Shown: positions 11,892 through 30,959 of the stretch, in pieces | Position numbering within the stretch: the first letter of the stretch is position 1 | Layout: each line of letters starts with the position of its first letter | From: Lysobacter antibioticus | GTDB taxonomy: Bacteria > Pseudomonadota > Gammaproteobacteria > Xanthomonadales > Xanthomonadaceae | Direction: 5' to 3' | DNA: 42,322 nucleotides | NCBI RefSeq assembly: GCF_001442535.1 | Contig: NZ_CP013141.1 | Coordinates: 5,059,009 to 5,101,330, forward strand | Program-made: the position numbers and the translations under genes | The notes under the pieces: generated by a model | What the model saw: the letters and a program-made list of their open reading frames with translations, nothing else | Told to the model about the DNA's origin: nothing | Database searches by the model: none

Positions 11892-12353
11892 CTAGGGGTC
11901 TTCTACAAGATTAAGTTCGACTCGTTGGTTTTTCCTGTAGTCCTCATGCCCGCTTGCGATTGGACGATTGAACGAGTACTCCCTCAGCGCAATGATTCGC
12001 CAAGGGTCGATCCCGGAGTCCAATACCATCTTGTACACAAGACGCGCACGCCTCAAGGCGAGATCGCTGCACATATTCCACTCACATTCGTAATGATCCG
12101 TATGGCCTACGATCTCGAACTGAATTTGCGGGAAGCGCTTTAGTGACTCAATGGATTCCTCCAGAGCAGCAATATCCGCCTTATCTTGGACCGAGGTCTC
12201 GATACTTTCTCCCTTCATGGGATGACCCGACTTGAAAGATGCGCCACGAAGGTCGAACGAAGTGCAGTTAACGCTCGCAGAAAACACCAATAAACAGGCC
12301 GTCAGCAACCAGGCAGATCAGGCAGATCAGGCAGATCAGGCAGATAGTTTCAT
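11892..12353 (-). pseudogene. OmpA-like exported protein gene interrupted by repeat-borne stop codons
   Basis: The natural start appears to be ATG 12353, seven bases after GAGG. It reads Met-Lys-Leu-Ser-Ala and then meets TGA three times (12318-12320, 12327-12329, 12336-12338), all inside a 9-bp tandem repeat, before continuing in the same frame as SAWLLTACLLVFSASVNC and a complete OmpA-like domain. Removing whole repeat units would restore a normal signal peptide. The mature part has the family's FKSGHP segment, EIVGHTD with the peptidoglycan-contact Asp, and LALRRA with the Arg. The two-cysteine loop ECEWNMC is also present. As it stands only re-initiation at TTG 12308 or a later codon could give protein (138 residues), with an impaired signal. 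It is either inactive or switchable. Confidence 0.75.
12311..12345. repeat. 9-bp tandem repeat inside a signal-peptide coding region
   Basis: AGGCAGATC occurs three times in full and a fourth time as eight bases, head to tail. Read on the minus strand each extra unit codes Ser-Ala-stop. The unit length is a multiple of three, so gain or loss keeps the frame but changes the number of stops. Confidence 0.93.
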
Positions 12354-12451: not shown

Positions 12452-13039
12452 TCATACAGATGATTGAACATCCCGATCAAAACAGCTCGCCTGTAACTCC
12501 CTAAGTTGGACAACGGCGCTCCTGTCATCACTCGCGAGCAGCCAATCAACGCACGCCGACTGCGCAGAAAGCTCGGCGCGCATCAGCCCCGACGAACGAA
12601 TCCGATTTTCGAAACTCGGATCGGCCGGATCTAGTTCTTCACGTGCCTGGACCAAACCGTCCACGGTATCTATCGCCAATTCTGCGACCACTTCCGCCTT
12701 CTCTGAAGCAGGCTCATCTAGAGCCTCTAACGTAATCGACAGTGCGTTAGCTGCATCAAGCGCTGCCGAAGTGAATTCGGAGCTAAAATTCTCTGTATCA
12801 GGCGCTTGTCTATCGCAGGAAGAAATCAAATCGACTCGATTCTCAGGCAGTACGCCATCCTTTACCCATACCCAAACATGATCGAGGGCATTTTGAAGAA
12901 CACCAGGATCGCCAAAGCCTGTCTCAGCGTAAAAGCGGTAGAAATTGGGAACCATGCGTTCGCAGCACGTCGCCATGAACGCGATAGTTTTCCATTCGGG
13001 TTGAGCGCGTAAAGCGCCCACACACATATCTGTGGCCAT
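12452..13039 (-). CDS. DUF416 (YjaG-like) family protein
   Basis: A 195-residue soluble protein. The region IAFMATCCERMVPNFYRFYA, followed by TGFGDPGVLQNALDHVWVWV, is the recognisable pattern of DUF416, of which E. coli YjaG is a member. Late in the protein AQSACVDWLL also fits. The function of the family is unknown; members turn up beside toxin genes, where they have been suggested as immunity-type proteins (recalled, not checked). There is no signal peptide, so if it is protective it acts in the cytoplasm, unlike the exported neighbours. The start is uncertain: GAAGGG lies about 12 bases before the ATG at 13039. Codon use is less GC-rich than outside the island. Confidence 0.8.
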   Translation of the reverse strand: MATDMCVGALRAQPEWKTIAFMATCCERMVPNFYRFYAETGFGDPGVLQNALDHVWVWVKDGVLPENRVDLISSCDRQAPDTENFSSEFTSAALDAANALSITLEALDEPASEKAEVVAELAIDTVDGLVQAREELDPADPSFENRIRSSGLMRAELSAQSACVDWLLASDDRSAVVQLRELQASCFDRDVQSSV

Positions 13040-13257: not shown

Positions 13258-13785
13258 TTATTTACAGCCCTTTTCGCTACCGCCACCTGAAGAACGATGG
13301 CATTGCTTCTTCATCCCGATGGAAGCTCCAAAGCGCTTTATGAAATTCGGCTCGCGCAGGCCAACCGCGTATGCGTCGCCGCGGTCGGACGCCACTACTG
13401 GACCGTCAAACGAAATTAGCCGATAGAACTCGTCCAAGGGAAAAACCAACAACACAGCGTCCGGCTCGAAGACTATGTCACCACCAGGATGTCTATTGGC
13501 CGCCACCAAATATCGATTCGAAAGCAACAATGGCGCGTCCCCACAAGCTTTGACATCACGATTCTCAAGCTTCCCCTTCGCAACCTCAGTCACTCTAATC
13601 ATGTAATAGGAGCGCCGGCCTTCATAGCCCGCGCAAGACCCGATCCCGGATCCAACCACCGCGCCAAAGAATATAAATTCCGATTTTGCGAAAACCTCCT
13701 CAAGGGGACGAACATCACCTCCTTCTTGAGCAAAACTATCACCAAAAAACATGAGCCAAAGAACAAAGAACGATATGATTCGCAT
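13258..13785 (-). CDS. Secreted protein with NTR/TIMP-like features
   Basis: A 175-residue exported protein. I place the start at ATG 13785, giving a compact signal peptide (RIISFFVLWLMFFGDSFAQ); an in-frame TTG lies two codons upstream. The mature chain shows the order AKSEFIFFGAVVG, then YYMIRVTEVAKGKLENRDVKA, then a Cys and LSNRYLVAAN. This 'source of export, beta strand, KG, Cys, YLV' pattern resembles bacterial netrin/TIMP-like (NTR) proteins; the N-terminal Cys-x-Cys of true TIMPs is missing. Four cysteines suggest disulfides. It lies among OmpA-like lipoprotein genes on the same strand, downstream of a candidate metallopeptidase tip. An inhibitory or immunity role is conjecture. Confidence 0.7.
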   Translation of the reverse strand: MRIISFFVLWLMFFGDSFAQEGGDVRPLEEVFAKSEFIFFGAVVGSGIGSCAGYEGRRSYYMIRVTEVAKGKLENRDVKACGDAPLLLSNRYLVAANRHPGGDIVFEPDAVLLVFPLDEFYRLISFDGPVVASDRGDAYAVGLREPNFIKRFGASIGMKKQCHRSSGGGSEKGCK

Positions 13786-13791
13786 GGCCAA

Positions 13792-13972: not shown

Positions 13973-14476
13973 CTAATCGACAGTCGGATTTATCTCTACG
14001 CGACGATTCCGCGACCGTCCTTCGTCCGTTTCGTTGTCGCCTATTGGCATGTTACTTCCATGACCGACAGGTGTTGTCAATGATGATGAAGAAACTCCCG
14101 CTGCAAGCAGCCAGTCATACACCATCTTTGCTCTGCGAGCGGATAGTTCTTGGCAATTTTCGCGGCACTCGATTCTATCGGTAAAGCCGAGCACCTCAAA
14201 CCTCAGCTGAGGCGTACCTCTGATGGCTTCAACGTTTAATTGGAGCGCTCGCTTATAAAACCCCTCAGGCTCAGCCAACGCCGCCTCAATGCTTTCGTTA
14301 TTCGTTGGATGCCCGGACTTCATGCGCACAGGGACTATCTCTATCCCGGAGGCCAATGCAACTCTATTTTCGTCATACTCGCCTCCAGCCCCCTTGCATG
14401 CGGAACAAAAAACGAAAAACAAGAGCAGATGGGCAACCACCACTCCATGTGGTGGAGGCCTAACATTATTAGCCAT
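13973..14476 (-). CDS. OmpA-like lipoprotein, island paralogue 2
   Basis: A 167-residue exported protein. The N-terminus (GVVVAHLLLFFVFCSAC) is a lipoprotein-type signal with candidate lipid-bearing Cys in CSAC near residue 27. The mature part holds RMKSGHPTNNES, then an OmpA C-terminal-like fold: RFEVLGFTDRIEC (peptidoglycan-contact Asp), CQELSARRAKMVYDWL (contact Arg) and a closing RSRNRRVEINP. Two cysteines in the loop after GFTD are shared by all island paralogues and probably form a disulfide. It is closest to the copy at 15017, including PVGHGS and a near-identical NETDEGR/NGTDEGR segment. Tethering to the outer membrane and binding of peptidoglycan are family knowledge; toxin immunity is inference. 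Confidence 0.85.
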   Translation of the reverse strand: MANNVRPPPHGVVVAHLLLFFVFCSACKGAGGEYDENRVALASGIEIVPVRMKSGHPTNNESIEAALAEPEGFYKRALQLNVEAIRGTPQLRFEVLGFTDRIECRENCQELSARRAKMVYDWLLAAGVSSSSLTTPVGHGSNMPIGDNETDEGRSRNRRVEINPTVD

Positions 14477-14512: not shown

Positions 14513-14971
14513 CTAATTGAACACGACGATTAATCTGCCTGCCGTCCTCAGTTGAACCATCTCCAATCGGCCAGTCAGCCCCCCTGACGCTGGTCCTTTC
14601 AACTTGGACGGGGGTACTCCTTGTTCAACAAGCCAATCGTAAACGTACGTTGCCCGTCGCATGGACAATTCCAAACAAGCAGCTTGAACACACTCTTTCC
14701 CATCAACAAACCCTATGACTTCGGCGCCGAGCCCCCGCGTTTCTTTCAAGGCATCAGAATTTTCTTTCAAAAGCCTGATCTGCTCCGAACTTGGCTCCCT
14801 TAAGACATCGACAATCAAGTCATCCACCAATGGACGGCCGACCTTAAATTCGACCCTGTTGAATTCAAAAGAAGTGGCGCGAACATTTCCTAGCCCAGAC
14901 CCAGCTTCTTTTACCTGCGTTGTACAACAGGCCAAAAACATCGGAACAGCCATCGCAATCTGGCGACGCAT
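14513..14971 (-). CDS. OmpA-like lipoprotein, island paralogue 3 (divergent)
   Basis: A 152-residue exported protein read from ATG 14971, which has a GGGGGCTGAT site; an in-frame GTG at 14983 is less likely. The signal (RRQIAMAVPMFLACC) ends in a lipobox-like FLAC. It keeps the family order: FKVGRPLVDD in place of FKSGHP, EVIGFVDGKECVQAAC, and LELSMRRATYVYDWL. Here GFTD is GFVD, yet the Asp and the two-cysteine loop remain. The C-terminus differs from its neighbours (GRLEMVQLRTAGRLIVVFN), so the ending RNRRVEIN is lost. This copy may have a changed ligand. It lies 45 bp downstream of the next paralogue's stop. Confidence 0.78.
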   Translation of the reverse strand: MRRQIAMAVPMFLACCTTQVKEAGSGLGNVRATSFEFNRVEFKVGRPLVDDLIVDVLREPSSEQIRLLKENSDALKETRGLGAEVIGFVDGKECVQAACLELSMRRATYVYDWLVEQGVPPSKLKGPASGGLTGRLEMVQLRTAGRLIVVFN

Positions 14972-15016
14972 ATCAGCCCCCACAAAAAAGCTTTTGCCGT
15001 ACTTACACAGGCGCAG

Positions 15017-15511
15017 TCAGTCGACGCTGACATTTATCTCCACGCGCCGATTTTTCTCCCGCCCCTCATCCGTACCGTTGTCTGCGATTGGCATCTCGCT
15101 GCCATGACCGACAGGAGGCTTTAGTGATGCAGGCGCCACACCGTTAGAAATCAGCCAATCGTATACCAGCCTCGCCCTTCGAATAGATAGATCTCGACAT
15201 TGGCTATCGATGCACTCCATATCATCCGTGAAGCCAAGCACCTCAAACCTCACGTGCGAGTGGTTTTTTATTATCTTCGCGTCTCGCTTCAGCGCATTTA
15301 AGAAGTACTCCTTCGGATCTCCCAATATTGACTCGAGACTTTCCCTGCCTTTGGGATGACCGGACTTGATCTCGACAGCGGTCATCTCCAAACCGGAATG
15401 CAGGGGCACTACTTCTGCTCGGCCAATTTCACTCGAAGACGAACAAGACACGAACAATGACGAGATCGAAAGAATTAACCAATTTGCGCGCCACGTGGAA
15501 TTCCTCATCAT
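15017..15511 (-). CDS. OmpA-like lipoprotein coupled to the RHS tip, candidate immunity protein
   Basis: A 164-residue exported protein. The ATG at 15511 overlaps the TGA of the RHS tip gene by one base, so translation is probably coupled; an ATG one codon later and an upstream TTG are alternatives. The signal (WLILSISSLFVSC) ends in FVSC followed by a Ser run, a lipoprotein pattern. The mature chain has EIKSGHPKGRES, RFEVLGFTDDMEC, CRDLSIRRARLVYDWL, PVGHGSEMPIAD and KNRRVEINVSVD. The OmpA-fold Asp and Arg that contact peptidoglycan are present, plus the two-cysteine loop typical of this cluster. Directly following a toxin-like tip is where an immunity gene usually sits; that role is inferred from position. 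Confidence 0.82.
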   Translation of the reverse strand: MMRNSTWRANWLILSISSLFVSCSSSSEIGRAEVVPLHSGLEMTAVEIKSGHPKGRESLESILGDPKEYFLNALKRDAKIIKNHSHVRFEVLGFTDDMECIDSQCRDLSIRRARLVYDWLISNGVAPASLKPPVGHGSEMPIADNGTDEGREKNRRVEINVSVD

Positions 15512-16458
15512 CACTTGCAACTCCCTTCCCTGCTCGATACACAGGATGTATTGACAGAACCTTCTGCCTGCCGCTCAATATTCTCCTTACTTATCATACC
15601 CTTCCAAAAAATCCAGCCATCACTTGAAGACTCAGAGAAATTAGCCGATTTTTGAAAATAAGCCTGGGCACTATAGCCAGCAACCTCTTCCTGTTTACGT
15701 TCTGCCCGTGTTGCAACTGGTCTTCCGCGAGCCCGATCATTCGCACCGTGCTCCCCCTCGTGAGCAGCAGCCCGACCCAAAACGTTCAACGTATCGTTTT
15801 CAGTTTTTTTCGTAGCTTGCATGATATCAAGCGTAATATGCGCCCCCCCATCTGCGCGGAAAGCAGCAGTTCCGCCGGGGCCCTTTAACGCACCAAATGA
15901 AACACTTACTTTATTGTCCTCCCCTGGCTTTCCGTAAAAGCCCGCGATTCTGGCCATGACACTTCGTTCACTCGAAGTAAGCCGGGGATTACTCGCAGCC
16001 GAAGCAATGCGCTCGAGGGCTTTTTCGAGGCTTGTACAATGAGACTTACTCCCTGAACACACATATCGTCCATCAGGATCGATAAAGCGGTAAGGATTGT
16101 TGTTCGCATACCAGTAGCGATTGAAGTTGCCACCCGTTTTCGAGTTTGCTGCAACAGGATCGACGGACAGGAAACGCCCTACTTCCGAGTCGTAGTAGCG
16201 CTGTTGCATGTAGGCCAAACCAGTCGCGGCATCACTGACATGACCGGTATATCCGGGACCATCGGATACCGGACGATTCAAGAGTCGACCATACGGCTCA
16301 TACTCGCTGCGCTCAACAACATTCTGATTGACGTCCGTCACGGCCACCGGGCTGCCGAGCGCATCCGTATGGATGTATTCGACGACGGTCTCCGCTTGCG
16401 CCCCAAGCGAGGCGAAGCTCAGCAGAGCCGCCGCGACGAGGTTCGAGATCCATTTCAT
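15511..16458 (-). CDS. Separately exported RHS core with HExxH C-terminal domain (candidate toxin tip)
   Basis: A 315-residue protein read from ATG 16458, with GGAGG seven bases upstream and only 14 bp after the previous stop. Residues 1-22 are a Sec signal (LVAAALLSFASLGAQA). Residues 23-130 are the RHS core that normally ends a long YD-repeat chain: HTDALGSPVAVTD, YEPYGRLLN, GYTGHVSDAATGLAYMQQRY, GRFLSVDP and NPYRFIDPDGR. The variable domain 131-315 has four cysteines and AAHEGEHGAN, an HExxH zinc-peptidase motif at 233-237, with Glu257/258 in KQEEVAGYS about 20 residues on as a possible third ligand. A metallopeptidase activity is a reasonable inference; the target is unknown. The core-plus-variable-tip plan marks it as a polymorphic toxin end. 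Confidence 0.82.
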   Translation of the reverse strand: MKWISNLVAAALLSFASLGAQAETVVEYIHTDALGSPVAVTDVNQNVVERSEYEPYGRLLNRPVSDGPGYTGHVSDAATGLAYMQQRYYDSEVGRFLSVDPVAANSKTGGNFNRYWYANNNPYRFIDPDGRYVCSGSKSHCTSLEKALERIASAASNPRLTSSERSVMARIAGFYGKPGEDNKVSVSFGALKGPGGTAAFRADGGAHITLDIMQATKKTENDTLNVLGRAAAHEGEHGANDRARGRPVATRAERKQEEVAGYSAQAYFQKSANFSESSSDGWIFWKGMISKENIERQAEGSVNTSCVSSREGSCK

Positions 16459-16472
16459 GTCATCGCCTCCGT

Positions 16473-17363
16473 TCAGTCCATCGCTTCGGTTCGGCGCGTC
16501 GCCGGGTACGGCGGACTCGACCAGGCCGAGCAGCCACCGGAGCCGCAGGCGCGGACGGCGTAGTTGTAGGCGCAGTACTGGCCGCTGGAACTGGACTGGA
16601 TCTGTGTGGCCGCGCCGCTGTACAGCACCGCACCGCTGTCGGTGGACTGGAGTTGATAGCTGGTCGCCTTGGCCACCGCTCCCCAACGGATCGTGCAGGT
16701 ATCCATCACGATCTTGCCGCGCAGCGTATTGCGCAGCCAATCCGCCAAGTTGATCGCCGGCGTGCCCGGCGGATGGTCGATGCTGATGAATCCGGGCTGG
16801 GAGTACGGGCCGCAGCCGGCGGCGTTGCATCCGCGCACGCGATAGCCGCGGGTGCCATCCGGCCGCCCCCAGATCGTCGCGCCGCCGGTGTTCTCTTGAT
16901 AGATCAGGGTCCAAGCGCCACCGCCAGCGCTCTCTTCGAGCTGGTAGGTCGTTGCCGTGTCGACACCGTTCCAACCGACCCAGAAGGTGCCGTTGTTGCT
17001 GCTGGCCGGGACACTGATCCCCGGTGCGGCCGTCGGCGGGCCTATGACATAGACGTTGGCGTCGCCGGACGTGGGGCCGCAGCCGGCGGCATTGCAGGCA
17101 CGCACTCGGTAGGAATAGGTGCCGGTGGAACCACCATAGATAGTCCGACTGGTCGCCGCGCCGTCCTGGATCAGCGCCCACCCTTGCCCCAGCGCGTTTT
17201 GTTCCAACTGATAGCTGCCCGCACTCGCGACGCTGCTCCAGCTCACGGTGAAGCTGCCCTGATCACTTTGCGCCGGCGCTGAGACGGAGGGCGCCGTGGC
17301 GGGTGGATAGATGACCTGGACTGTACCCTCGGCCGAGTAAGGCCCGCACCCGGTGGGGTTGCA
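16473..17363 (-). pseudogene. Out-of-frame C-terminal continuation of the long RHS gene (Fn3-like modules)
   Basis: After a one-base loss near 17363 the reading frame of the long RHS protein continues here: CNPTGCGPYSAEGTVQV, then three more Fn3-like modules closing with YRVRACNAAGCGPTS, YRVRGCNAAGCGPYS and YAVRACGSGGCSAW. It ends at TGA 16473-16475 after RRTEAMD. Without the deletion it would add about 297 residues to the upstream protein. No start codon of its own with a signal peptide is seen, so it is probably not made as a separate protein. The lesion may also be a sequencing error. Confidence 0.8.
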
Positions 17364-20300
17364 GCTTTCGCGCGATAGCGGTAGCTGTCCGCCGCCTTGC
17401 CGGCGAACGCCTTGGACAGCCCGGTACCGCTGTATGCGGTCGTCCATGACGCCCCGTCCGCGCTTTCTTCCAGCACGTAATCGGTGGCCCCTCCGACGCT
17501 GCTCCAACCCACGCTGTACTGGCCGTTGAGAGCAGTACCCGGCGCGGACAAGGACGGCGCCGAAGACGGTGGACGCTGCAGCACGACGGTCGCGACCGCG
17601 CTCCAACCACCGCAACCCACCGCGTTGCAGGCCCGCACCCGATAACCGTAGCTGCCGTCGGCTCGCCCGGACAGCGTCCGGCTGCGCTCCGCGCCGCTGT
17701 AGATCCCTTGCCAGGACCCGCCATTGGCTTGCTCTTGAAGCTCGTAACTGCCCTGGGCCGTGGTCAGGCTCCAGCTCACCTCGAAACTGCTCTGCGCGAC
17801 GAAACTCGGCGCCGTCAACACAGGCACGTCGGGTGCGACCGGGGTGCTGGCACGAGCGACCAGGCTGCCGTTGAGCTGGATATAGGCGATGTCCTTTTCT
17901 TTGCGGAAATCGCGCTGATAACGCAGCACGCCATCCTGGCCGTACATCGAAACGATGCCGCCAAAGGTGGGACTGGTCGCCAATACCCGCCTGCCATGGC
18001 CGTCGTAACGATAGGTCTCGGCGCCGACGGCTTCGCGCAAACGATTGCCGAAATCGAACTTGAACTGTTGGCCGTTCTTGTTATCCAGATTGCCTTGAAC
18101 GTCGTAACCCAGCCCGATCACCGATTGACCGGTACCGGTCAGCTGGACGTTGGTCAGGCGATTGGAGCCATCGTAGTAGTAGGTATGACTGCGCCCCGCG
18201 ACGTCGACCGTGCGCAGGTTGTCCAATACGTCGTATCCATAGCTGGCCGAGCCGAACATGGCCGAGCTCGCGGCAGTCAGCCGATCCACGCCATCGTAGG
18301 TCATGCTGCGGTTGCCTCGGGCACCCGGCAAACCGTCGCTGACAGCCGCCACATTGCCGTTGGCGTCGTAGTCGTAGCTGTCGTCATGGACGGCAGCGTT
18401 GCCGGCGTCGCGACTGCGCTCGGCCAGGCCGCGCAGGTTCTGCTCCAAGGTGTGGACGATGCCATTACCGTAGGTGAACCTGGACATGCCTCCATTGGCG
18501 AAGTAGGCCACGCCCGTCGCATAAGCACCCGCCTGTCGCGGCTGCCCTAATGCATTCACGGCATAGGCAACCGCCTGCCCATTGGGATAGGTGTGCGAGT
18601 CGAGATGACCTTCGTTGCTGTACGCCACGCCGATGGCCCAATCGATGCCATCGAACTGCAGGCGCTCGCGGGTCAAGAAGCGGCGCTTGTTGTATTCGTA
18701 GCTATTGGTGACCGAAGCCGCGCCGCTGGTGTTGTTGGTGACGATCTGCTTCACCTGGCCATCCGGGTAATAGTCCCACCACTGATTGCCGCGGCCGTCC
18801 GGGAATGCGAGCGTCTTGACCCGGTTGCGGCTGTCGTAGCTGCGAGTGACGGCCCGGCCGGAGGCCAGCGCCTCGTCGCGGTTGCAATTGTTCGCCGCAG
18901 GCGCCGCCACGCCGGACGCCGACCACGCCACATTGTTGGCGGCGTCGTAATCCACGACGGTGGCGCCGGTTTCCGGCTCGATCGATTTGCACAGGCGCTT
19001 GCGGTCGTCGTACACGTACTGGCGCACCGCCTGCACGCTTCCGTCCGAGTTTCTCCGTTTGATGCTCTCGATCGCGCCGAACAGATCGCGATGAAGTTCA
19101 GTGGCGATCCCCTCGCCTTGCACGACACCAACTGGCAGGTCGTAGGCAGGCTGGTCGTATGCCTGGAACAGCGTGACGGTCTGTTGCTGGCGCGGATTGG
19201 TCGTTCGCGTCATCAACTGGGCCAAGTACTCGGTGCGCGTCGTCAGTTGACCGAGCTCGCTGTCCTGCTTGATCGATACGACGCGCCCGAGGGCGTCGTA
19301 CTCGGTGTGCGTACCCTGTGCAGGCCCGGTCCCCCAGTCCAGCCCCGGATAACTCGAAAAGGTCGGCCGCCCCTTCTCGTCGTAGCGCGCTGCGGTCATG
19401 CGTATGGTGCCGAACAGATCGGCGCCGTCCCATTCATGGGTCAGTACCGGCCGCCATAACGCATCGAGAAAGACGTTCTTCGCCCGATTTCCGGTAACGG
19501 TGCTCTGCATCCAATGCCCGGGCGGCAGGCCGTATTCGGCCATATCCCGGCGCGACAAGGTGATGTTAGTGGGGTACCAAGCGTTCGAGTCCGCACCTGG
19601 GTAGTTGATCGATGCCAGCCGCCCCACTGGGTCGTAAGAGTAGGCGGTAGTGAACGCGTTTTCGTCGGTGACCGAACTGATCCAGCCGTTATCGTCCACC
19701 ACCGCGGACTCACCGGTCTGGTTGGGATATTGGATCGATTGCGGCAGTCCCCGCTTCCAGCCGTTCAAAGAGACCGCATTGTTGCGCCCGTCCCTGACCT
19801 CGGCCAGCGTTCCATCCGCATGATAGGCATAGCTTTCGACCAGGCGGCCGAAGGTCAGTCTTTGAATCGCTTGAGCGTTATCGTTGTAGCGCGTCTCCGA
19901 CATCACCCAGCCGGTATCGGCGTTGGTCTCGCTCTTGACTTGGCCGAGCACCCATAGCGCCAGGTCATCGTGATACGCCGTCGTATCGGTGCGGCTGCGA
20001 TCGCTCGATGTGCCGGACGCCCACTTGCTCACACTGAGAGGACGGACCAATGCATCGAAGCTGTTGAAGCTGCGGTTGAAGGTGGCGCCGTCCTGCGTGG
20101 TTACCACCGACTTCAACGGCCGATTGGCATTGGGAAGCCGGTCGGAATATTCATCCCCGTTCGAACCCATCCAATCGGGAAACGGCTGATTCGCCGCTTC
20201 CGCGTCGGAAAGGTAGTTGTTCTGGACGACCTTGTAGATCACCCCGGCTTTACGGGTGACGACGCTGAACAGCAGCCCTTCGTTGATATCCCGGTCGCGG

Positions 20301-21805
20301 CCGAAGGTATGCACGTTCTGCGTACCATCCGGCTCGGTCACCGTCACTGTCTTGTAGTTCGGTGCCGGCGGTGCGTACTTGGCGTTCCAATCCGGCCCGA
20401 TGTCCCAACGCGACTCGTCCTGGGTCTCGTAGCCCTCGCCCAACCCGTCGTAGGAATAGGTATAAACCTGCTCGGCGACACCGGGGCCGGAAATATGTTT
20501 CTCGATTAGCGACCAGGTGTCGTGATGAGTGGAGTAGCGGTTGCGCTGACTGTTTCCTTCGTCGCTTCCGGTCTCGCAAAGGTAAGGCACACTGGTTCGG
20601 CCGTGCCGCATGCCTTTGAAAATGTATTCCGCTACGGCGCCCGACGGATGAGTGATCCTGGCTCGTGAAGTCGTATCCTTCAAGATCGAACCGGGCGAGC
20701 ACGGAACGTTCTTCTTCGGGTAGGTCTGGTTGGTCTCCGGGTTCAACAGGTACTCGGCCACGTCCAGGCGGTGCGTATTGAACTGCGCCGGTCCGTCGTA
20801 CTTCCATTCGGTCCCATCCGGGTTCTGGACGTTGCCGCCATAGCCATAAGGATAGGTGAACGTCCAACGCCGGCCGTTCACGGTCGCGGTGAGGATATTG
20901 GTCTGAAAGTTTCCGGTGAATAGATACGGCGCCGAGTCCGTATAGGTCATGCTGATCTCGCGACCGTCGCTGGCATAGATACGCTTGGGATGATCTAGCT
21001 CCCATTCGTACTTGACCCAATTTCCAAAACGGTCTTCGATCTTGCTGACGTAGAGCTTGAGCTTGTAGCGATGCAGTAGGGCGTTGGGGACGTTGTAGCC
21101 CCAGGGATGGGTGATCGACGAGTAACGGCGGTAGACCAGCCAATCGAAGGTGTATTTCGTGCCGTCCGGCGCATAGCCGATCAGTCCCTTGCCGGGACCG
21201 TTCTGTACGCTGGGCAATTCGGAGAAGAACCAACCGTCCTTGGTGGCGTAGGTGTAGTTGATCGAGTTCACCGGTTTGACGCGCTTCGGGTCCGCCGGGA
21301 TGCTCAGCAAGTCCCCACCGCCGCCGCCATCGATGGTGAGCCGGTTACCGCTCCAGAACATCGAGCGGTCGAACTCGACATAGCCGTTGTTGACGTTCGC
21401 GGGTACCGGCACCCAGCCATTCTGCTGAGAGCTCTTGCTCTCGTGGACAGCGCCGACATAAGGGATGTCGAGGTCCCAATTGCCATTGAGCTGCCCCTGG
21501 GTGATGTCGTGCGGGTCGTGGAAAATACCCAGCGCCACGCGCAACCCGCTGTTTCCGGGCAAAGCGACCAGATCGTGGCTGAAGCGGACAGTGCCGTTGA
21601 ACAGGCTTACTTTGTCGCCGAACGCTTCGTCGCCCAGCGGCGACACGTTCTCGGTGGAACGAACCCGCTTGGCGTATTCGTTAGGCCAATCGGTCCCCTG
21701 GGCCCGTACCGAACCGAGCGTCAACGCCAGTGCGAAAAACGCCGTCCAGACCAAGGCGCGCCGCAACCAGTGATTGCGATCGGTAGTTCCGTTTGCAGTT
21801 TTCAT
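17243..21805 (-). CDS. Very large Sec-exported RHS/YD-repeat protein, frameshifted near its end
   Basis: A 1,520-codon frame. Residues 1-36 are a Sec signal (WTAFFALALTLGSVRAQG). Up to about residue 1,320 it is an RHS-type chain with many YD motifs: YSYDPVGRLASINYPG, YDALGRVVSIKQD, YDDRKRLCKSIEPETG, YDYDANGNVAAVSDG and YRYDGHGRRVLAT, expected to wrap into a hollow beta cocoon. It reaches IAYIQLNGSLVARA, the point where a usual RHS chain passes into its core. Here instead come Fn3-like modules ending in YRVRACNAVGCGGWS. In the second module a base is missing near 17363: after YRYRAKA the true frame would be CNPTGCG, but the present frame runs 41 junk codons to a stop. The core is coded by the next gene. 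Confidence 0.85.
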   Translation of the reverse strand: MKTANGTTDRNHWLRRALVWTAFFALALTLGSVRAQGTDWPNEYAKRVRSTENVSPLGDEAFGDKVSLFNGTVRFSHDLVALPGNSGLRVALGIFHDPHDITQGQLNGNWDLDIPYVGAVHESKSSQQNGWVPVPANVNNGYVEFDRSMFWSGNRLTIDGGGGGDLLSIPADPKRVKPVNSINYTYATKDGWFFSELPSVQNGPGKGLIGYAPDGTKYTFDWLVYRRYSSITHPWGYNVPNALLHRYKLKLYVSKIEDRFGNWVKYEWELDHPKRIYASDGREISMTYTDSAPYLFTGNFQTNILTATVNGRRWTFTYPYGYGGNVQNPDGTEWKYDGPAQFNTHRLDVAEYLLNPETNQTYPKKNVPCSPGSILKDTTSRARITHPSGAVAEYIFKGMRHGRTSVPYLCETGSDEGNSQRNRYSTHHDTWSLIEKHISGPGVAEQVYTYSYDGLGEGYETQDESRWDIGPDWNAKYAPPAPNYKTVTVTEPDGTQNVHTFGRDRDINEGLLFSVVTRKAGVIYKVVQNNYLSDAEAANQPFPDWMGSNGDEYSDRLPNANRPLKSVVTTQDGATFNRSFNSFDALVRPLSVSKWASGTSSDRSRTDTTAYHDDLALWVLGQVKSETNADTGWVMSETRYNDNAQAIQRLTFGRLVESYAYHADGTLAEVRDGRNNAVSLNGWKRGLPQSIQYPNQTGESAVVDDNGWISSVTDENAFTTAYSYDPVGRLASINYPGADSNAWYPTNITLSRRDMAEYGLPPGHWMQSTVTGNRAKNVFLDALWRPVLTHEWDGADLFGTIRMTAARYDEKGRPTFSSYPGLDWGTGPAQGTHTEYDALGRVVSIKQDSELGQLTTRTEYLAQLMTRTTNPRQQQTVTLFQAYDQPAYDLPVGVVQGEGIATELHRDLFGAIESIKRRNSDGSVQAVRQYVYDDRKRLCKSIEPETGATVVDYDAANNVAWSASGVAAPAANNCNRDEALASGRAVTRSYDSRNRVKTLAFPDGRGNQWWDYYPDGQVKQIVTNNTSGAASVTNSYEYNKRRFLTRERLQFDGIDWAIGVAYSNEGHLDSHTYPNGQAVAYAVNALGQPRQAGAYATGVAYFANGGMSRFTYGNGIVHTLEQNLRGLAERSRDAGNAAVHDDSYDYDANGNVAAVSDGLPGARGNRSMTYDGVDRLTAASSAMFGSASYGYDVLDNLRTVDVAGRSHTYYYDGSNRLTNVQLTGTGQSVIGLGYDVQGNLDNKNGQQFKFDFGNRLREAVGAETYRYDGHGRRVLATSPTFGGIVSMYGQDGVLRYQRDFRKEKDIAYIQLNGSLVARASTPVAPDVPVLTAPSFVAQSSFEVSWSLTTAQGSYELQEQANGGSWQGIYSGAERSRTLSGRADGSYGYRVRACNAVGCGGWSAVATVVLQRPPSSAPSLSAPGTALNGQYSVGWSSVGGATDYVLEESADGASWTTAYSGTGLSKAFAGKAADSYRYRAKAATPPGAGLTRPRVQSRSSIHPPRRPPSQRRRKVIRAASP

Positions 21806-22149: not shown

Positions 22150-25100
22150 TTACGGAGTGACGGTCAAGGCCACGCGCAACGCCACCTTCGGCCGCACCGG
22201 ATCGTCGCTGGCCACGCAGACATAACCCACGTGTCCGCCCGGCGCGAGGCCGGCGGTGTTGATGCGCACGCGATTGGCGATCGTGCCGTGTCCCGGCACG
22301 GTGCCGAAGGCGCGCGTCGGCGCACCGATCCACGGCGCACCGCAAGCGCTCAGGCCCTGGATGTCGTAGGCCAGCCCGGCGAAACCGGCACCGGCCAACC
22401 AGGTGCCGACACCGCCCGCGTCCGGCGCGATGGTGCGGAACTGGTTGTCGCCGCTGTTGGAGGCGAACCACACCCAACGGTTGGCGAAGCTGGTACGCGC
22501 ATTCACCACCAGCCAGTAGCGGCCCGGAGCGAGTTCGACGTTCTGCCCGGCGGCGGCCAGGTCCAGCGCGATGTTGGCGCCGTCCAGGGTCACGCCCGCG
22601 CCGTTCGGCGCGGAGGTGTAGCTCCACACCGCATTGCCGGCCAACGGGTTGCTGCTGGGATTACCGCCGTTGTCGGCATACACGCTCCAACTGATGTTGG
22701 TTGCCGTGCTCGCCAGGGACGCACCGCTGGACACGAAGCCTTCCGAGAACAGCTTGGACAGGCGCGTGGTGTCGGTCAGGGTGAAGTCGTCGCTGGAGAA
22801 CTGCGCCGGCAACCCGCCGGCCGACGCCGGATCGGTGTAGATCGTGCTGCGGAAGCCGCTGGCGACGCCTTCGCTGCTGGCGCTGACGACCGTGCGCGAT
22901 GCCGAACCGGTGTTGTCGACCTGGAACTCCAACGGCGAGCCGCTGGTGTTGCCGATGCTGAAGTCGGCGAAGCCGCGGCTGCCTGCCCTCAGGCTCAGCG
23001 ACACTTGCTCCGGGCTCAGCGCGATCGCCGGCGGCTGCACCGCGACCGCGATCGGCAGATGCAGATCTGGCGATGCGCGGGTCAACAGCGGTTTGAGGTC
23101 GAGCTGACCGAAGTGCCAGCTTCCGTCCTTGGCGAAGCCCGTGCTCAGCACGATCACGTGCACCGTCGTGCTCTGGCCGGGCGCCGACAGGAACACCGGC
23201 GGGAAGGCGATGCCGTCGAGCCCCTTGACCTGCGCCAACCACAACTCAGGCTTGCCCTGGGCGTGGCGGAAGGTGCGCTTGAACGTGCACGAGCCGTAGC
23301 ACTCGCGCTTGTCCAGGCTGGCCAGGTTGAGCTTGGAAACGTCGCCGCCGGTGGCCGGATCGGCCGCCAGGAAGTTCGCCGTCGTCTCGTTGAGCACCAG
23401 CCCCGAGCGCAAGGCGCGATCGACCTGGATGCGGCCCGCGCCCATCGCGAAGGCATCGGCCGGCGTGACTTCGTCTTCTTTGAAGACCTCCTGCTTGGCG
23501 GTCATCATCAGGGCCGACTTGATCTCGTGCGAGGTCCAATCGGGCTTGGCCTGGCGCAGCAGCGCGGCGGCGCCGGCCTGATGCGGCGACGCCATCGAGG
23601 TACCGCTGAGCAGGCCGACGATGTTCTCGCTGCCGGTCAGGGTGGTGCCGGAAATCACCGCGAGCACGTTGACGCCGGGCGCGGTCACGTCGGGCTTGAT
23701 CAGGTCCAGGCCGTCGGTCGGACCGCGCGAGCTGAAACCTGCGAGCACATCGGGCGTGTTCGGAATCGGCGTCGGCGGGAAGTTGATCCCACCGGTCGTG
23801 GTATTGCCGTTGCCGGTGGCGAAATTGCGCAAGGCATCGCTGTCGGTCTGCGCGGCGAGGAAGGTCGGGATCGTCGTGCCCGGGACGCTCGGCGAGGTGA
23901 CGCCCGGCTGGTTGTTGGCGATCACCACCGCGACCGCACCCGCGGCGGCGGCATTGTTGACCTTGATGCTGAAGTTGCAGGTGCCGCGACGCACCACCGC
24001 GACCGCATTTTGGAAGGTGGCGGCGGGGAACGCGGCGCAACCGTCGGCGGCGGTGTCGATGCCGGCGCTGACGCGGACCGGCGTGGTCGGCGGCAACGAC
24101 GTGGTGAACGCCGCGCCGGACGAGCCTTCGGTCAATACCACCGCTTGCAACGCCGGCGGCACGGTGCCGGGACCTGTCACCTGCAACAGATAGGCGAAGG
24201 TGCCGCGGCCGTGCTGGGAAGCGGCGGTCGTCGAGGTCCACGGTTCCTGGTGGCCCATGGTGCTCGGGCCCGGGCCGCTGTTGCCGGCGGCAGCGGCGAT
24301 GTAGATGCCGGCATCGGCCGCATTGAGGAAGGCCAGCGAAACCGACTCGCCCCACGGCGATGCGCCGCCGCCGATGGAGTAGTTGATGACGTCGACGCCG
24401 TCGGCGATCGCCTGGTCGACCGCGGCCACCGCCGAGGTGTTCGGGCATTGGCCTTGGTTGGTCGCGATGATCGTGTAGCAGATGTCGTAGGCGATGATGT
24501 TGGCGTGCGGGGCGACACCGGAAATGCGGATGTTGCGGCCCTTGTAATTCGCGGTCCAGGCGTTGCCGGCCGCGGTCGATGCGGTGTGGCTGCCGTGGCT
24601 GTTGGTGTCGCCGAAACCGGGCTCTTCGCGCAGGCCCGGGACGCCGCAGGTGTTGCCGGGCGGTCCGCAGACGAAGTCGTAGCCGCCGATCAACTTGTCG
24701 TTGCAGCGGCCTTCGTCGACGCCGCCGGGGGCGCAGGAACCGAGGTAGTTGCCGCTGCCGTTGGGATTGATGTGCTGATAGCCGGTGTCGTCGACCGCGG
24801 CGAACGCCGGGCTGCCGAAGTTGATGCCGGTGTCGAGCACGCCGACCAACACGCCTTCGCCGCGGAACTGGGTCGGGCTGGCGTTCCACAAGGCGGGCGC
24901 GCCGATCAGCTGCGGGCCGACGTCGGTCGCCAGCGGATACTCGCGATATTCCTCGACCAGTTCGACCCCGGGCAGCTTGGCGATGCGCGCGGCTTCGTTC
25001 TGGGTCATGCGGGTGACCACGCCGTTGACGGCGTGATGCATGCGGCGCTCGATCGCGAGCGGACGGCCGATCAGCGAACTGATGCCGCGCTCGTGATCGC

Positions 25101-25470
25101 GCTGCACGGTATCGAGATGGCGTACGTAGCTGCGCGCTTGTGCGCTGTGCACGTCGATGCGATTGCTGCCGCCGCTCGCGCTCTTGGCGGCAGCGCTGTT
25201 CGCGTTCTGCGCGCCGGCCAGGCGTTGCGGTGCGGGCAGGCCCGCGACTTCGCCGTGGTAGGTGCTGAGCGGTGCTTCCTTGTACAGCACGATGTAACGG
25301 CTGGTCTGGGTTTCCAGGCCGTTATGGACACGATTCGGCGATGGTGCGCCGCCGATCGCGCCGGCATCGGCCGGGCTGTCGTTGGAGAGGCCGCGGATCG
25401 CGGCCCCCGCGAGCGCCGCCAGCCCGACCAGGCTGATGGCGATCGTCAATCGGTTCAGTGCAGTTGGCAT
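22150..25470 (-). CDS. Secreted S8 (subtilisin-family) protease 1 with PA domain
   Basis: A 1,106-residue exported serine endopeptidase. ATG 25470 follows AGGAG; the frame is open further upstream but lacks a signal. Residues 1-30 are the signal/hydrophobic segment, followed by an I9-like propeptide at about 58-185 (RYIVLYKEAPLSTYHGEVAG to GVELVEEY). The S8 domain has Asp213 (VGVLDTGIN), His292 (SHGSHTAS), the oxyanion Asn397 (AAAAGNSGP) and Ser625 (SGTSMASPHQAG). A PA domain is inserted between His and Ser at about 430-560 (AVVRRGTCNFSIKV). Beyond about 720 come an Fn3-like subtilase region and ASPM/hydin-like beta domains, ending in a C-terminal segment shared by all four paralogues (GYVCVASDD). 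Extracellular nutrient or prey protein digestion is inferred. Confidence 0.93.
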   Translation of the reverse strand: MPTALNRLTIAISLVGLAALAGAAIRGLSNDSPADAGAIGGAPSPNRVHNGLETQTSRYIVLYKEAPLSTYHGEVAGLPAPQRLAGAQNANSAAAKSASGGSNRIDVHSAQARSYVRHLDTVQRDHERGISSLIGRPLAIERRMHHAVNGVVTRMTQNEAARIAKLPGVELVEEYREYPLATDVGPQLIGAPALWNASPTQFRGEGVLVGVLDTGINFGSPAFAAVDDTGYQHINPNGSGNYLGSCAPGGVDEGRCNDKLIGGYDFVCGPPGNTCGVPGLREEPGFGDTNSHGSHTASTAAGNAWTANYKGRNIRISGVAPHANIIAYDICYTIIATNQGQCPNTSAVAAVDQAIADGVDVINYSIGGGASPWGESVSLAFLNAADAGIYIAAAAGNSGPGPSTMGHQEPWTSTTAASQHGRGTFAYLLQVTGPGTVPPALQAVVLTEGSSGAAFTTSLPPTTPVRVSAGIDTAADGCAAFPAATFQNAVAVVRRGTCNFSIKVNNAAAAGAVAVVIANNQPGVTSPSVPGTTIPTFLAAQTDSDALRNFATGNGNTTTGGINFPPTPIPNTPDVLAGFSSRGPTDGLDLIKPDVTAPGVNVLAVISGTTLTGSENIVGLLSGTSMASPHQAGAAALLRQAKPDWTSHEIKSALMMTAKQEVFKEDEVTPADAFAMGAGRIQVDRALRSGLVLNETTANFLAADPATGGDVSKLNLASLDKRECYGSCTFKRTFRHAQGKPELWLAQVKGLDGIAFPPVFLSAPGQSTTVHVIVLSTGFAKDGSWHFGQLDLKPLLTRASPDLHLPIAVAVQPPAIALSPEQVSLSLRAGSRGFADFSIGNTSGSPLEFQVDNTGSASRTVVSASSEGVASGFRSTIYTDPASAGGLPAQFSSDDFTLTDTTRLSKLFSEGFVSSGASLASTATNISWSVYADNGGNPSSNPLAGNAVWSYTSAPNGAGVTLDGANIALDLAAAGQNVELAPGRYWLVVNARTSFANRWVWFASNSGDNQFRTIAPDAGGVGTWLAGAGFAGLAYDIQGLSACGAPWIGAPTRAFGTVPGHGTIANRVRINTAGLAPGGHVGYVCVASDDPVRPKVALRVALTVTP

Positions 25471-25859
25471 GAGAGATCTCCTCGTCCGTTCGCGAAGAAA
25501 CCGCCCCACGCCTGCCCCCTCAGGCATGTCGCGGTTCGAATTCAGGAAGGTAAAGATCGTCGGCGACGAACAGCGGCCCTGCTCCGTGCCCGCAGCCCCC
25601 CAGCGCCCTTCCAAGCGCCGGAACTACCGCAAACGCAACGAGGCGTTGCCTCCCCTCCCAAGCCAGCAGCCTGCTGGAGCCTCGAACGTTGCGGCGTGAT
25701 GAGTAACACATTTTCGATGCGCCTACAGATGCTTTTTCGGTATGTTGCAGTGCTGAAACCTCAGTTCCCGGGCAGGGCCGGGCGTGCGGCCGGTACCGGC
25801 CAACGATGGCGGCGAAGCCGAACGAACCTGTCGCCCTCGGCGAGGCCTGCCGCAAACGA
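25471..25859. other. Promoter region of S8 protease 1
   Basis: No gene is supported in these 389 bp. The region should contain the protease 1 promoter and leader; a CRP/Clp-like palindrome lies at 25695-25710. Open frames read here overlap upstream parts of the protease frame that have no family resemblance. Confidence 0.45.
25695..25710. promoter_or_regulatory. CRP/Clp-like site upstream of protease 1
   Basis: CGTGA-TGAGTA-ACACA matches eight of the ten consensus bases of TGTGA-N6-TCACA. It lies about 225 bp before the protease 1 start. In Lysobacter and Xanthomonas the CRP-like regulator Clp controls exoenzymes (family knowledge); binding here is unproven and the distance to the start is long. 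Confidence 0.3.
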
Positions 25860-25884
25860 CGATGGCGCCCCGTGGGCGCCATCG
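25860..25884 (-). terminator. Hairpin terminator downstream of S8 protease 2
   Basis: CGATGGCGCCC and GGGCGCCATCG make an 11-bp stem with a 3-base loop about 80 bp past the protease 2 stop. On the plus strand it is followed by TTTTG, on the minus strand by CGTTT, so it could work in both directions. Confidence 0.65.
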
Positions 25885-25964
25885 TTTTGTTGCATCGCGG
25901 CAGAATCGCGGCGTTCACCTTGCATCGCAGCACGAGCGGCGGTAAGACGCGCTGCGGTGCGGCC

Positions 25965-28900: not shown

Positions 28901-29249
28901 CGATCTCGGCTTCGTGCCGCGCCTGCAGGCGCTCGAGGTAATCCAGATAGACGCGTGCGCGATTGCTGTGCACGTCCAACCGTCCGCGGCCGGCATGGCC
29001 GGCCCGCTGTCGCGCCGCTGCCGGCAAATGGTCCGATTCGCCGCGATAGGCGCTCAGCGGCGCCTCGCGATAAACCACGACGTAGCGCACGGCATCGCTG
29101 CCGCTGCCCGTACTCAAGCTCGGCGGCGGAGCGCCGCCGACCGACCCCGAATTTCCTGCCTCTTCGCGCGACACCTTCATGGCCGCGAAAGCGAGCGCTG
29201 TCACCGCCGCCGCGGCTACCGCCACGGCGATCGAAATCTGCTTCGACAT
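25965..29249 (-). CDS. Secreted S8 protease 2 with an altered active-site surround
   Basis: A 1,094-residue paralogue of the neighbouring proteases, read from ATG 29249 with GGGGAG upstream. The signal is SIAVAVAAAAVTALAFAA. The propeptide spans about 55-165 (RYVVVYREAPLSAYRGE). Asp199 (IGVIDSGIN), His278 (GDSQGHGTQVAS), Asn384 (PAGNLGAEAG) and Ser611 are present. The nucleophile loop, though, reads NGTSIAAAHNAG: the usual Met-Ala-Ser-Pro after the Ser is Ile-Ala-Ala-Ala, and the oxyanion region has Val-Pro in place of Ala-Ala. The PA domain (RRGTCTFSIKV) and C-terminal beta domains are kept. It may have altered specificity or reduced activity. It is the most divergent of the four and lies between protease 1 and the YadA-like gene. 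Confidence 0.9.
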   Translation of the reverse strand: MSKQISIAVAVAAAAVTALAFAAMKVSREEAGNSGSVGGAPPPSLSTGSGSDAVRYVVVYREAPLSAYRGESDHLPAAARQRAGHAGRGRLDVHSNRARVYLDYLERLQARHEAEIGRALGRRLHVERRLRHALNGAVLRLSAAEAARVAERPEVLLVEPYREYAQAGDTGPALLGAPALWNAVPTSFRGDDVVIGVIDSGINFGSPSFAGVDEANHQHVNPLGSGNYLGSCAPGGVDQGRCNDKLIGGYDFVCGAPGNFCGISTVREEPGFGDSQGHGTQVASVAAGNARTVQYKGRDVAISGVAPHANLIAYDACYSVVSTGQGYCPAVSVVAAVDQAVADGIVDVLNLSITGGLEPWGEAVSLALLNATEAGIYVAVPAGNLGAEAGKVEHIEPWVATTAAAQHGRGEFASLLQVTGPAPVPAALQTIVLGESSTGVPLTAAISTSTPLRASPGINTGSDGCSAFPSGTFQGAIAVMRRGTCTFSIKVNNAAAAGAVAVVMANNVPGTFAPTYPGTTIPAFHVSAADGTQLRDFAMSQASATAGIGYPATPIPNTPDVLAGSSGRGPAGRFSVLKPDLTAPGVLVLAATSGTAISGSESAVALANGTSIAAAHNAGSAALLRQARPQWSAAEVKSALMMTAKPEVFLADEYTVGNAHAIGAGRIRVDQAWSAGLVLDETAANFRAANPANGGDPANLNLASLAQAKCPDSCSFTRVFRNTSADAQTWDLVLHGFPGSIAPTQFTLAPGASQTVLVTIDSSGVPKDNSWRHGRLELSSGSGSTQAVLRLPIAIAVPPPAIAFNPAQVSLSVAAGSNATVPFRVENRGGSSLLYQFQLGGTALRTLVDTSASPIAYGDMSTIFTDPNLNPPAAFAAEDFTLTETTRIGKVLVRGANSGGSPVASVAMMLGWSVYPDFNGNPSGHPMTVGNPPAVWNFSTASMTAPGLRLKGGDIGLDLAAANQTLELAPGRYWLVPYVRTAQATQWIWQQSNSAGSNGYRTMRLGVYSWRNGLPGPGGTGLAWRVETQHACGASWILTNLGSGQVGIGNGDDHDVTVVSNGLAPGHYVGYVCVSSDDPERPNSALRVELTVTP

Positions 29250-29435
29250 CCTGTTGTCTCCCCGGGTGATTGGACGATACGAGCGCACCGCCCGGCCGCG
29301 ATGTTCGCATTGCACCGCGCGGATGTCCGCTGCGGCCGCGCGCATTGCGGTGGCTTGCAAAAGCACAACCAAGCTGCGCCCGGCCGATCGCCGAAGCTGC
29401 GACGCCGTGGCCCGTCCGGGAGGCTGGGCGCCGGC

Positions 29436-29465
29436 AAAAAAAAGCGGCGCCCTCACGAGCGCCGC
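29436..29465 (-). terminator. Rho-independent terminator of the YadA-like gene
   Basis: On the minus strand GCGGCGC, an 8-base loop and GCGCCGC are followed by eight T, 84 bp past the YadA-like stop. The 299-bp gap to protease 2 holds this terminator and the protease 2 promoter; no gene is seen there. Confidence 0.92.
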
Positions 29466-29548
29466 CCTTTACTTGTCGCCTTCGGAAATCGCGCTTCAAC
29501 GCTGGAACATCGACGGCCCCGGCTTACACGACAACCATGCGAACCGCC

Positions 29549-30817: not shown

Positions 30818-30923
30818 ACTGTCCCCCAGTAGGATGTCGTGCGCCGCCGCGGATCCGTGCATCGGCGCGGCGGCGGAAAGAAGCATCGACGCGGACCGCG
30901 CAGGCGGCCGCGCCCGGTTTTGA

Positions 30924-30952
30924 GGTGCCGGACCGAGTGCGGGTCCGGCACC
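30924..30952 (-). terminator. Hairpin downstream of S8 protease 3
   Basis: GGTGCCGGACC and GGTCCGGCACC form a perfect 11-bp stem with a 7-base loop, 8 bp past the protease 3 stop. There is no T-run on the minus strand, so termination strength is uncertain. Confidence 0.6.
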
Positions 30953-30959
30953 CGGAGCG

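What the first reader, a model, noticed from the sequence alone, without database searches (positions are those of the whole stretch)
15511..21805. An RHS chain divided into two separately exported proteins at the core boundary
In ordinary RHS proteins the segment '...LNGSLVAR' passes directly to '...HTDALGSPVAVTD' and on to the core and toxin. Here the first gene reaches IAYIQLNGSLVARA, adds Fn3-like modules and stops; 14 bp later a new gene begins with its own Sec signal and resumes at VEYIHTDALGSPVAVTD. The two halves would have to be exported separately by Sec and re-joined, or the tip would act free of the shell. A two-part RHS toxin with a Sec-exported tip would differ from the type VI or Tc-linked pattern of one continuous chain. 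Whether such splits are already catalogued in this family could not be checked.
Basis: partly seen in the sequence, partly recalled or inferred. Interest (0 to 1): 0.75.

Follow-up and report, generated by a model that had tools for sequence, protein, structure and literature searches.

The report
Two-piece RHS toxin: shell plus lid
A bacterial weapon normally made as one long protein chain is here encoded as two proteins with separate export signals, a hollow shell and a toxin carrying the shell's lid, and the same split recurs in many relatives, so it looks like a working design and not a broken gene.

Summary
The split is real and not a recent break. A YD-shell gene (17243-21805, minus) is followed by a tip gene (15511-16458, minus) with its own start, SD-like site, signal peptide, RHS core and HExxH toxin. 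One correction: the shell gene has a frame break near 17.36 kb. Its YD frame stops 784 bp before the tip; only the Fn3 tail, in another frame, stops 14 bp before it. Intact copies exist: the host's second locus (15-bp gap) and Lysobacter sp. ISL-50 (14 bp).

In 120 fetched regions plus the window I classified 63 exported tips and 82 one-chain proteins. Of the 63 tips, 44 follow a shell lacking its own core; 17 have no shell in the fetched stretch. Adjacent pairs also occur in seven other families of the class, once as a bare chain break with a 4-nt overlap. A shell tree forces at least seven changes of architecture.

Best reading: the shell and the lid-toxin are exported separately by Sec and close together outside the cytoplasm. 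Assembly is inferred. Contrary to the finding, Tc toxins (TcB+TcC) are a known two-chain cocoon, but split mid-barrel. Verdict: a new variant of a known kind.

The parts
17243..21805 (-). shell gene as it stands: signal-like N-terminus, YD-repeat shell, one whole Fn3 module and part of a second, then an out-of-frame tail
   Evidence: PF05593 RHS_repeat E 3.3e-15
21701..21805 (-). predicted signal peptide of the shell (ends ..GSVRA|Q), called by eye
   Evidence: sequence
17855..21697 (-). YD shell up to the LNGSLVA strand, lacking the RHS core
   Evidence: barrel modelled for residues 331-1440; 30 of 34 RHS/Tc/teneurin rows end at model residues 991-995
17570..17833 (-). first Fn3 module, directly after the shell
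17350..17390 (-). interval in which the shell gene's reading frame breaks
   Evidence: each frame compared separately with paralogue L037
16473..17370 (-). remaining Fn3 modules, in a different frame from the shell; stops 14 bp before the tip gene
16464..16471 (-). Shine-Dalgarno-like GGAGG in front of the tip ATG
   Evidence: sequence
15511..16458 (-). tip gene (315 aa): signal peptide, RHS core, toxin
16393..16458 (-). signal peptide of the tip (MKWISNLVAAALLSFASLGAQA|E); cut site by eye
16066..16386 (-). RHS core / lid with the aspartyl autoprotease residues (R87, D100, P122, D127, G130)
15511..16065 (-). C-terminal toxin domain, predicted zincin-like (invariant H233, E234, H237, E258)
15017..15520 (-). 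OmpA-domain lipoprotein-like gene overlapping the tip's end; likely immunity
14513..14983 (-). second OmpA-domain lipoprotein-like gene
13973..14476 (-). third OmpA-domain lipoprotein-like gene
11892..12308 (-). fourth OmpA-domain gene

Best explanation
This is one member of a conserved two-gene RHS toxin. Gene 1 encodes an open YD-repeat barrel with a Sec signal; its chain leaves the shell in the loop where a normal RHS would run on into its lid. In the Lysobacteraceae members examined it carries Fn3 modules at this freed C-terminus. Gene 2, closely linked or overlapping, encodes the missing lid (RHS core with the aspartyl self-cleavage site) fused to a toxin, with its own Sec signal. Shown from sequence: the split, its recurrence, signal-like N-termini on both pieces, close gene spacing, the conserved core, and toxin types shared with one-chain relatives. 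Inferred: both pieces cross the inner membrane separately; the lid-toxin docks into the open shell in the periplasm or outside; the lid's protease cuts the toxin free; the Fn3 or other appended modules serve binding; the toxin (here zincin-like, probably a metallopeptidase) attacks rival bacteria, and exported lipoproteins beside it give immunity. The route across the outer membrane is unknown; the host has a type II secretin and no detected type VI sheath protein.
For: Recurrence: of 63 exported tips classified in the window and 120 fetched regions, 44 follow a core-less YD shell: 29 with the shell stop 56-161 bp before the core, the window, 9 behind shells with a short extension, and 5 later tips in tandem (recounted in 104). 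Signal: 28 of 30 hits chosen only by shell-stop position have an in-frame hydrophobic stretch, against 2 and 0 in the other frames. Coupling: stop-to-start gap -4 nt in 8 of 28 loci, 35 nt or less in 26 of 28 (starts picked by script). Wider: 12 more adjacent pairs in seven other families of the class; in L288 the shell ends ..YLGDKRVAQQVSP with no extension and overlaps the tip by 4 nt. Core: R87, D100, P122, D127 and G130 kept in 61-62 of 63 tips and 78-82 of 82 one-chain proteins; mean core identity 66% within each class, 63% between. Fit: the modelled shell matches solved Rhs, Tc and teneurin shells up to model residues 991-995 in 30 of 34 such rows (9ifo to residue 2037), and the tip core picks up at 9ifo position 2040. 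Folding: 747 of 1110 shell residues are modelled at pLDDT 90 or more, whereas nearly all core residues 84-131 of the tip alone are below 50. Interchange: the shell tree needs 9 changes of architecture, at least 7 forced by starred branches; 12 of the 14 toxin clusters printed hold both architectures. Export context: GspD found, VipB not found.
Against: No complex was modelled and no protein was seen. 17 of 63 tips have no shell in the fetched stretch (two of them beside a contig end); genomes G163 and G124 hold tips but no YD shell at E <= 1e-5, and G130 only YD fragments. G071 has a core-less shell with no core match in about 7 kb downstream. Outside the family only 10 of 29 printed core hits in the first 20 regions stand next to a core-less shell. 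Shell and tip-core divergence are barely correlated in split pairs (Mantel 0.25; Spearman 0.04 among pairs with shell distance above 0.4) against 0.58 and 0.47 in one-chain proteins, so there is no sign of pair-specific co-adaptation. Low pLDDT of an isolated core can also come from a thin alignment (51 rows); I folded no one-chain protein as a control. In-frame hydrophobicity alone does not separate the classes fully: 23 of 82 one-chain proteins pass the same cut, though only 2 of 82 have A-x-A there. SD-like sites were found at only 21 of 62 tip starts (10% at random positions). The window's own shell gene is frame-broken.
Confidence: 0.7

Rival explanations
1. The tip is an autonomous secreted toxin that works free of the shell; the RHS core is kept only as a linker or as homology for recombination, and the neighbouring shell does something else, such as adhesion.
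For: Exported tips exist in two genomes without any detected YD shell (G163, G124) and 17 of 63 have none in the fetched stretch. Shell and core barely co-diverge. Conserved toxin cysteines (C134 invariant; C141, C306, C314 nearly so, in 51 rows) suit a free extracytoplasmic protein.
Against: The lid and self-cleavage residues are as conserved as in one-chain proteins, the isolated core is not confidently modelled, and 44 of 63 tips follow a shell that lacks exactly this piece.
Confidence: 0.18
2. The tips are a reserve of cassettes, like CDI/Rhs orphan modules, that matter only after recombination onto a full-length RHS gene.
For: Toxin types are shared between architectures, shells switch architecture, tips form tandem arrays (L042, L043, L072, L097), and CDI orphans are common (PMC3150448 passages).
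Against: CDI orphan cdiA-CT genes mostly lack translation starts, and the EC93 orphan lacks a signal sequence. Here 28 of 30 hits chosen only by shell-stop position keep an in-frame hydrophobic signal, 8 of 28 tip starts overlap the shell's stop, and the upstream shells have no core of their own.
Confidence: 0.08
3. The split is an artefact or decay: a once continuous gene recently broken by mutation or misassembly.
For: The window's shell gene does have a frame break, and one-chain relatives exist (82).
Against: The frame break lies in the Fn3 region, not at the shell/tip junction. The junction is intact and nearly identically spaced in a paralogue and in another Lysobacter and recurs in eight families. 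A recent break would not by itself create a signal peptide (inference).
Confidence: 0.02

Closest known systems
Tc toxin TcB/TcC cocoon (TcdB2-TccC3, YenB/YenC2)
   Same: An RHS cocoon made of two separate chains, the second ending in the RHS core with an aspartyl self-cleavage site and a toxin (PMC8765631 passages; shell and core match 4o9x, 4igl, 6h6e).
   Different: In Tc the break falls mid-barrel (YenC2 covers model residues 543-994 of the shell); here it falls after the last matched shell strand, so the second chain is only lid plus toxin. The second chain here has its own Sec signal. Pfam found no SpvB or propeller domain in the window's shell; a TcA partner was not looked for.
One-chain Sec-exported RHS proteins of the same family of bacteria (WapA-like in export, recalled)
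   Same: Same shell, same core, shared toxin types, and signal-like N-termini by eye in many of 30 printed.
   Different: One continuous chain from shell to toxin, with the YD match ending next to the core and no signal in front of the core.
T6SS Rhs effectors (RhsA, Tse5, RhsP)
   Same: Shell fold and C-terminal lid with the PxxxxDPxG motif.
   Different: No PAAR/VgrG found by Pfam, Sec signals instead, and no VipB sheath gene found in the host genome.
CDI/Rhs orphan toxin-immunity modules
   Same: Detached toxin tips with immunity genes, often in tandem.
   Different: CDI orphan tips mostly lack a start codon, and the EC93 one a signal; these tips have both and mostly follow core-less shells.
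Tox-MPTase toxins (Zhang et al. 2012)
   Same: HExxH metallopeptidase toxins attached to RHS repeats (PMC3482391 passages).
   Different: No Pfam toxin model matched the window's tail; relation to a particular Tox-MPTase is unproven.

Membership tests
RHS polymorphic toxin | YD/RHS repeat shell | tested here: met
RHS polymorphic toxin | RHS core ending in PxxxxDPxG with the two catalytic aspartates | tested here: met
   Rhs_assc_core E 2.4e-21; D100 and D127 conserved; counterparts of RhsA D1324 and D1346 by alignment
RHS polymorphic toxin | variable C-terminal toxin after the core | tested here: met
   142 tails (of 145 classified) fall into 75 clusters
RHS polymorphic toxin | cognate immunity gene beside the toxin | tested here: inconclusive
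   OmpA-domain genes follow the window's tip, L040 (the L. antibioticus locus also listed as L194), L077 and L193, but not L195 nor the 11 other members of the same 14-member toxin cluster; immunity was not assayed
RHS polymorphic toxin | shell, core and toxin in one chain | tested here: not met
   same in 62 further tips
Tc toxin BC pair | cocoon from two separate chains | tested here: inconclusive
   two genes and fitting pieces; assembly not tested
Tc toxin BC pair | SpvB and propeller domains in the B chain | tested here: not met
   no such Pfam match in the window's shell at E <= 0.1
Tc toxin BC pair | split mid-barrel, C chain with about half the shell | tested here: not met
   YenC2 (4igl_B) aligns to model residues 543-994; here the shell match runs to 991-995 in 30 of 34 rows
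Tc toxin BC pair | TcA translocation partner | not tested
   not searched
T6SS Rhs effector | PAAR/VgrG-linked, type VI secretion | tested here: not met
   no PAAR match; VipB 0 of 1 genome, control rings in E. coli
CDI/Rhs orphan module | toxin fragment without start and export signal | tested here: not met
Zincin metallopeptidase (toxin domain) | HExxH motif with a downstream ligand and zincin fold | tested here: inconclusive

The most novel reading that the evidence does not exclude
A delivery design not described in the papers I could search: cells export the RHS shell and its lid-toxin as separate Sec cargo and arm the weapon only outside the cytoplasm. The tips are exchangeable cartridges, several of which can queue behind one shell gene and fit shells of different descent, while the shell's freed C-terminus carries binding modules (Fn3; in other families Ig, cadherin, PKD, carbohydrate-binding or propeller-like).
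Probability: 0.45. Interest if true: 0.85.

Novelty: new variant of a known kind. Interest (0 to 1): 0.7.

Why it matters
In the RHS toxins known to me the toxin is built into the same chain as the shell or, in Tc toxins, into the second half of the barrel. A natural break exactly at the lid, with a new export signal on the toxin piece, would show that a closed toxin cage can be assembled from separately exported parts. It gives a natural system to test how the cage is loaded, why the self-cleaving lid is needed and how toxins are exchanged. It also means that some short proteins annotated 'RHS repeat-associated core domain-containing protein' are whole genes and not fragments.

Tried and rejected
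Considered and rejected: (1) recent gene break at the junction: contradicted by intact copies with the same spacing. (2) T6SS effector: no PAAR match and no VipB. (3) A single ancient origin of split shells: the core tree is too short to tell (145 rows, 101 columns, 12 changes, 2 forced), and the shell tree forces at least 7 changes (a quick tree with SH-aLRT support only); gain, loss and recombination of the 3' end were not separated. (4) Pair-specific co-evolution of shell and tip: not found. (5) A similar stretch upstream of some shell-less tips was seen but not followed.

Limits: the classes rest on my script's rules (YD homology running into the core, a GSLVA-like motif, or a hydrophobic stretch with an A-x-A-like end) plus three corrections by eye (L137 to one-chain; L131 and L046 to exported). 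Because hydrophobicity helped to define the exported class, the frame test (60 of 62 in frame, 6 and 6 in other frames; A-x-A 50, 6, 2) is partly circular; one search repeats it on 30 hits chosen only by shell-stop position (29 exported, and L052, a one-chain gene with a frame break). Of 163 core hits, 14 partial, 2 edge and 2 other were set aside. The sample follows the best-scoring matches, whose list was cut; of 150 listed places I transcribed, 8 were not fetched (seven near contig ends, one by oversight). The named genomes overlap with the unnamed ones and are not an independent sample. Signal peptides were judged by hydrophobicity, motif and eye, not by a trained predictor. Start codons were picked by script. 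PDB positions are sequence indices and those are entry numbers, so the fit at 9ifo may be off by a tag.

Literature: eight searches of open-licence PMC papers and passages of seven papers gave no description of a separately exported RHS lid-toxin. Subscription journals and preprints were not searched.

Structure: no two-chain prediction was available. VgrG2b and AsaP1 matches of the toxin domain in Foldseek are weak.
Full report
WHAT IS IN THE WINDOW. The window lies in a closed 5.77-Mb genome; the nearest named tip homologue is from Lysobacter sp. 22409 (81% identity). On the minus strand a YD-shell gene starts at 21805 and a tip gene runs from 16458 to 15511. The tip reads MKWISNLVAAALLSFASLGAQA, then ETVVEYIHTDALGSPVAVTD, the RHS core (Rhs_assc_core E 2.4e-21) and a 185-residue tail. 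The shell gene ends its YD part at LNGSLVARA and enters Fn3 modules. The shell frame and the frame of the later Fn3 modules differ: the YD frame stops at 17243, and the Fn3 frame stops at 16473, 14 bp before the tip ATG. Comparing each frame separately with the paralogue places the change between about 17350 and 17390. The finding is therefore right about the junction and incomplete about the shell gene.

INTACT COPIES. The host's second locus (L037, 2.08 Mb) has a 1788-aa open shell frame and a tip that is 74% identical to the window's over residues 1-139, with a different tail. Lysobacter sp. ISL-50 (L195) has a 1785-aa shell, a stop, 14 bp and the tip ATG; L. enzymogenes ATCC 29487 (L193) has a 1789-aa shell with its stop 82 bp before the tip's core.

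HOW COMMON. A search with the tip found matches in 101 of 198 genomes of the family at E <= 1e-20. I fetched 120 regions around listed matches, from 75 genomes, and with the window classified 163 distinct core hits: 63 exported tips, 82 one-chain proteins, 14 partial, 2 at edges, 2 other. The residue before HTD is I, V, F, Y, L or M in 63 of 63 exported tips and Q in 68 of 82 one-chain proteins. Context of the 63 tips (recounted in 104): 29 directly behind a core-less shell (stop 56-161 bp before the core), the window itself, 9 behind shells with a short extension (7 of 9 end in YQLLLN-type sequence; small exported ORFs stand between shell and tip in the five I looked at), 5 later tips in a tandem row, 2 behind a one-chain protein, 17 with no shell in the fetched stretch. 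Among named genomes (77 loci, 95 classified hits, overlapping with the genomes above) 39 were exported tips, 53 one-chain, 3 other; the exported tips include Lysobacter, Xanthomonas, Stenotrophomonas, Pseudoxanthomonas and Luteimonas.

OUTSIDE THE FAMILY. Matches at E <= 1e-15 occur in 56 of 151 genomes drawn from the order and 28 of 274 from the class, and at E <= 1e-12 in 25 of 299 from the phylum; the draws include genomes of the family, and the listed matches outside the class lie mostly in long frames. In 20 further regions, mostly chosen for short frames, 10 of 29 printed core hits stand next to a core-less shell (L175, L178, L179, L180 twice, L182, L187, L188, L190, L191); the others have no shell in the stretch, are later tips, or are not exported tips. 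Of 4 more regions, L287 and L288 are adjacent pairs. That makes 12 pairs in seven other families of the class (family codes). L288 is the barest form: the shell ends YLGDKRVAQQVSP with nothing added, and the tip overlaps it by 4 nt.

SIGNAL AND COUPLING. Among 30 hits chosen only because a shell frame stops 30-200 bp before the core, the preceding stretch is hydrophobic in the coding frame in 28, in the other frames in 2 and 0; A-x-A 24, 5 and 3. In the exported class as I defined it the figures are 60, 6 and 6 of 62 and 50, 6 and 2, partly by construction; in one-chain proteins 23 of 82 pass the hydrophobicity cut in frame and 2 of 82 have A-x-A. Shell stop to tip start is -4 nt in 8 of 28 measured loci and 35 nt or less in 26 of 28. 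An SD-like motif was found in 21 of 62, against 10% at random positions.

EVOLUTION. On a tree of 100 shells (64 one-chain, 27 + 9 split; those long enough to use) the architecture changes 9 times, at least 7 of them forced by starred branches. Of the 14 toxin clusters printed 12 hold both architectures (142 tails, 75 clusters). Shell and core co-diverge in one-chain proteins (Mantel 0.58) much more than in split pairs (0.25; Spearman 0.04 among distant shells). So split and one-chain forms seem readily interchanged, and tips seem to move between shells. The last point also speaks against tight pair-specific fit.

APPENDED MODULES. In the family the freed C-terminus carries Fn3 modules. Elsewhere it carries Ig, cadherin, PKD, Fn3 and carbohydrate-binding domains (L188), a weak propeller-like match (L191) or nothing (L288). 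A binding role is inferred.

AGAINST. G163 and G124 have tips but no YD shell at E <= 1e-5; G130 has only fragments; G071 has a shell with no core match nearby. These leave room for tips that act alone or are remnants.

EXPORT. The host has a GspD secretin above the family cut-off and no VipB match, so type VI delivery is unlikely here. The step across the outer membrane is unknown.

KNOWN OR NEW. Tc toxins already show a two-chain cocoon, split mid-barrel. I found no description of a split at the lid with a second export signal in eight open-literature searches. I call it a new variant of a known kind.

Noticed in passing
window 22150-38179 (-): Four large subtilase genes (Peptidase_S8 with PA domain, two with fn3_6) stand in a row upstream of the RHS locus.
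   Followed up: no
window 12452-13039 and 13258-13791 (-): A DUF416 gene and a signal-bearing ORF (by eye) without Pfam match sit among the OmpA-domain genes; possibly further immunity genes.
   Followed up: no
L041, L045, L065, L071, L076: Shells with a short extension, ending YQLLLN or YQIILS, are followed by small exported proteins of about 100-120 aa before the tip; function unknown.
   Followed up: partly
L134, L143, L146, L150: Shell-less tips share a long conserved leader (MRRFGG..) in front of the hydrophobic part, unlike ordinary signal peptides.
   Followed up: no
L075 6953 and 10481: Two exported tips stand downstream of a one-chain RHS gene instead of a core-less shell.
   Followed up: no
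L188:2515-13536 (-): A 3674-aa shell whose C-terminal extension holds Ig, cadherin-like, PKD, Fn3 and CBM_4_9 domains before the separate tip.
   Followed up: partly
L285 (G071:C124): A core-less shell frame (1880 aa) without a core match in about 7 kb downstream; the only tip listed for this genome is on another contig.
   Followed up: partly
P0008, P0082: Close tip homologues are labelled Pseudomonas in public records (62% and 75% identity), which may be mislabelling or transfer.
   Followed up: no
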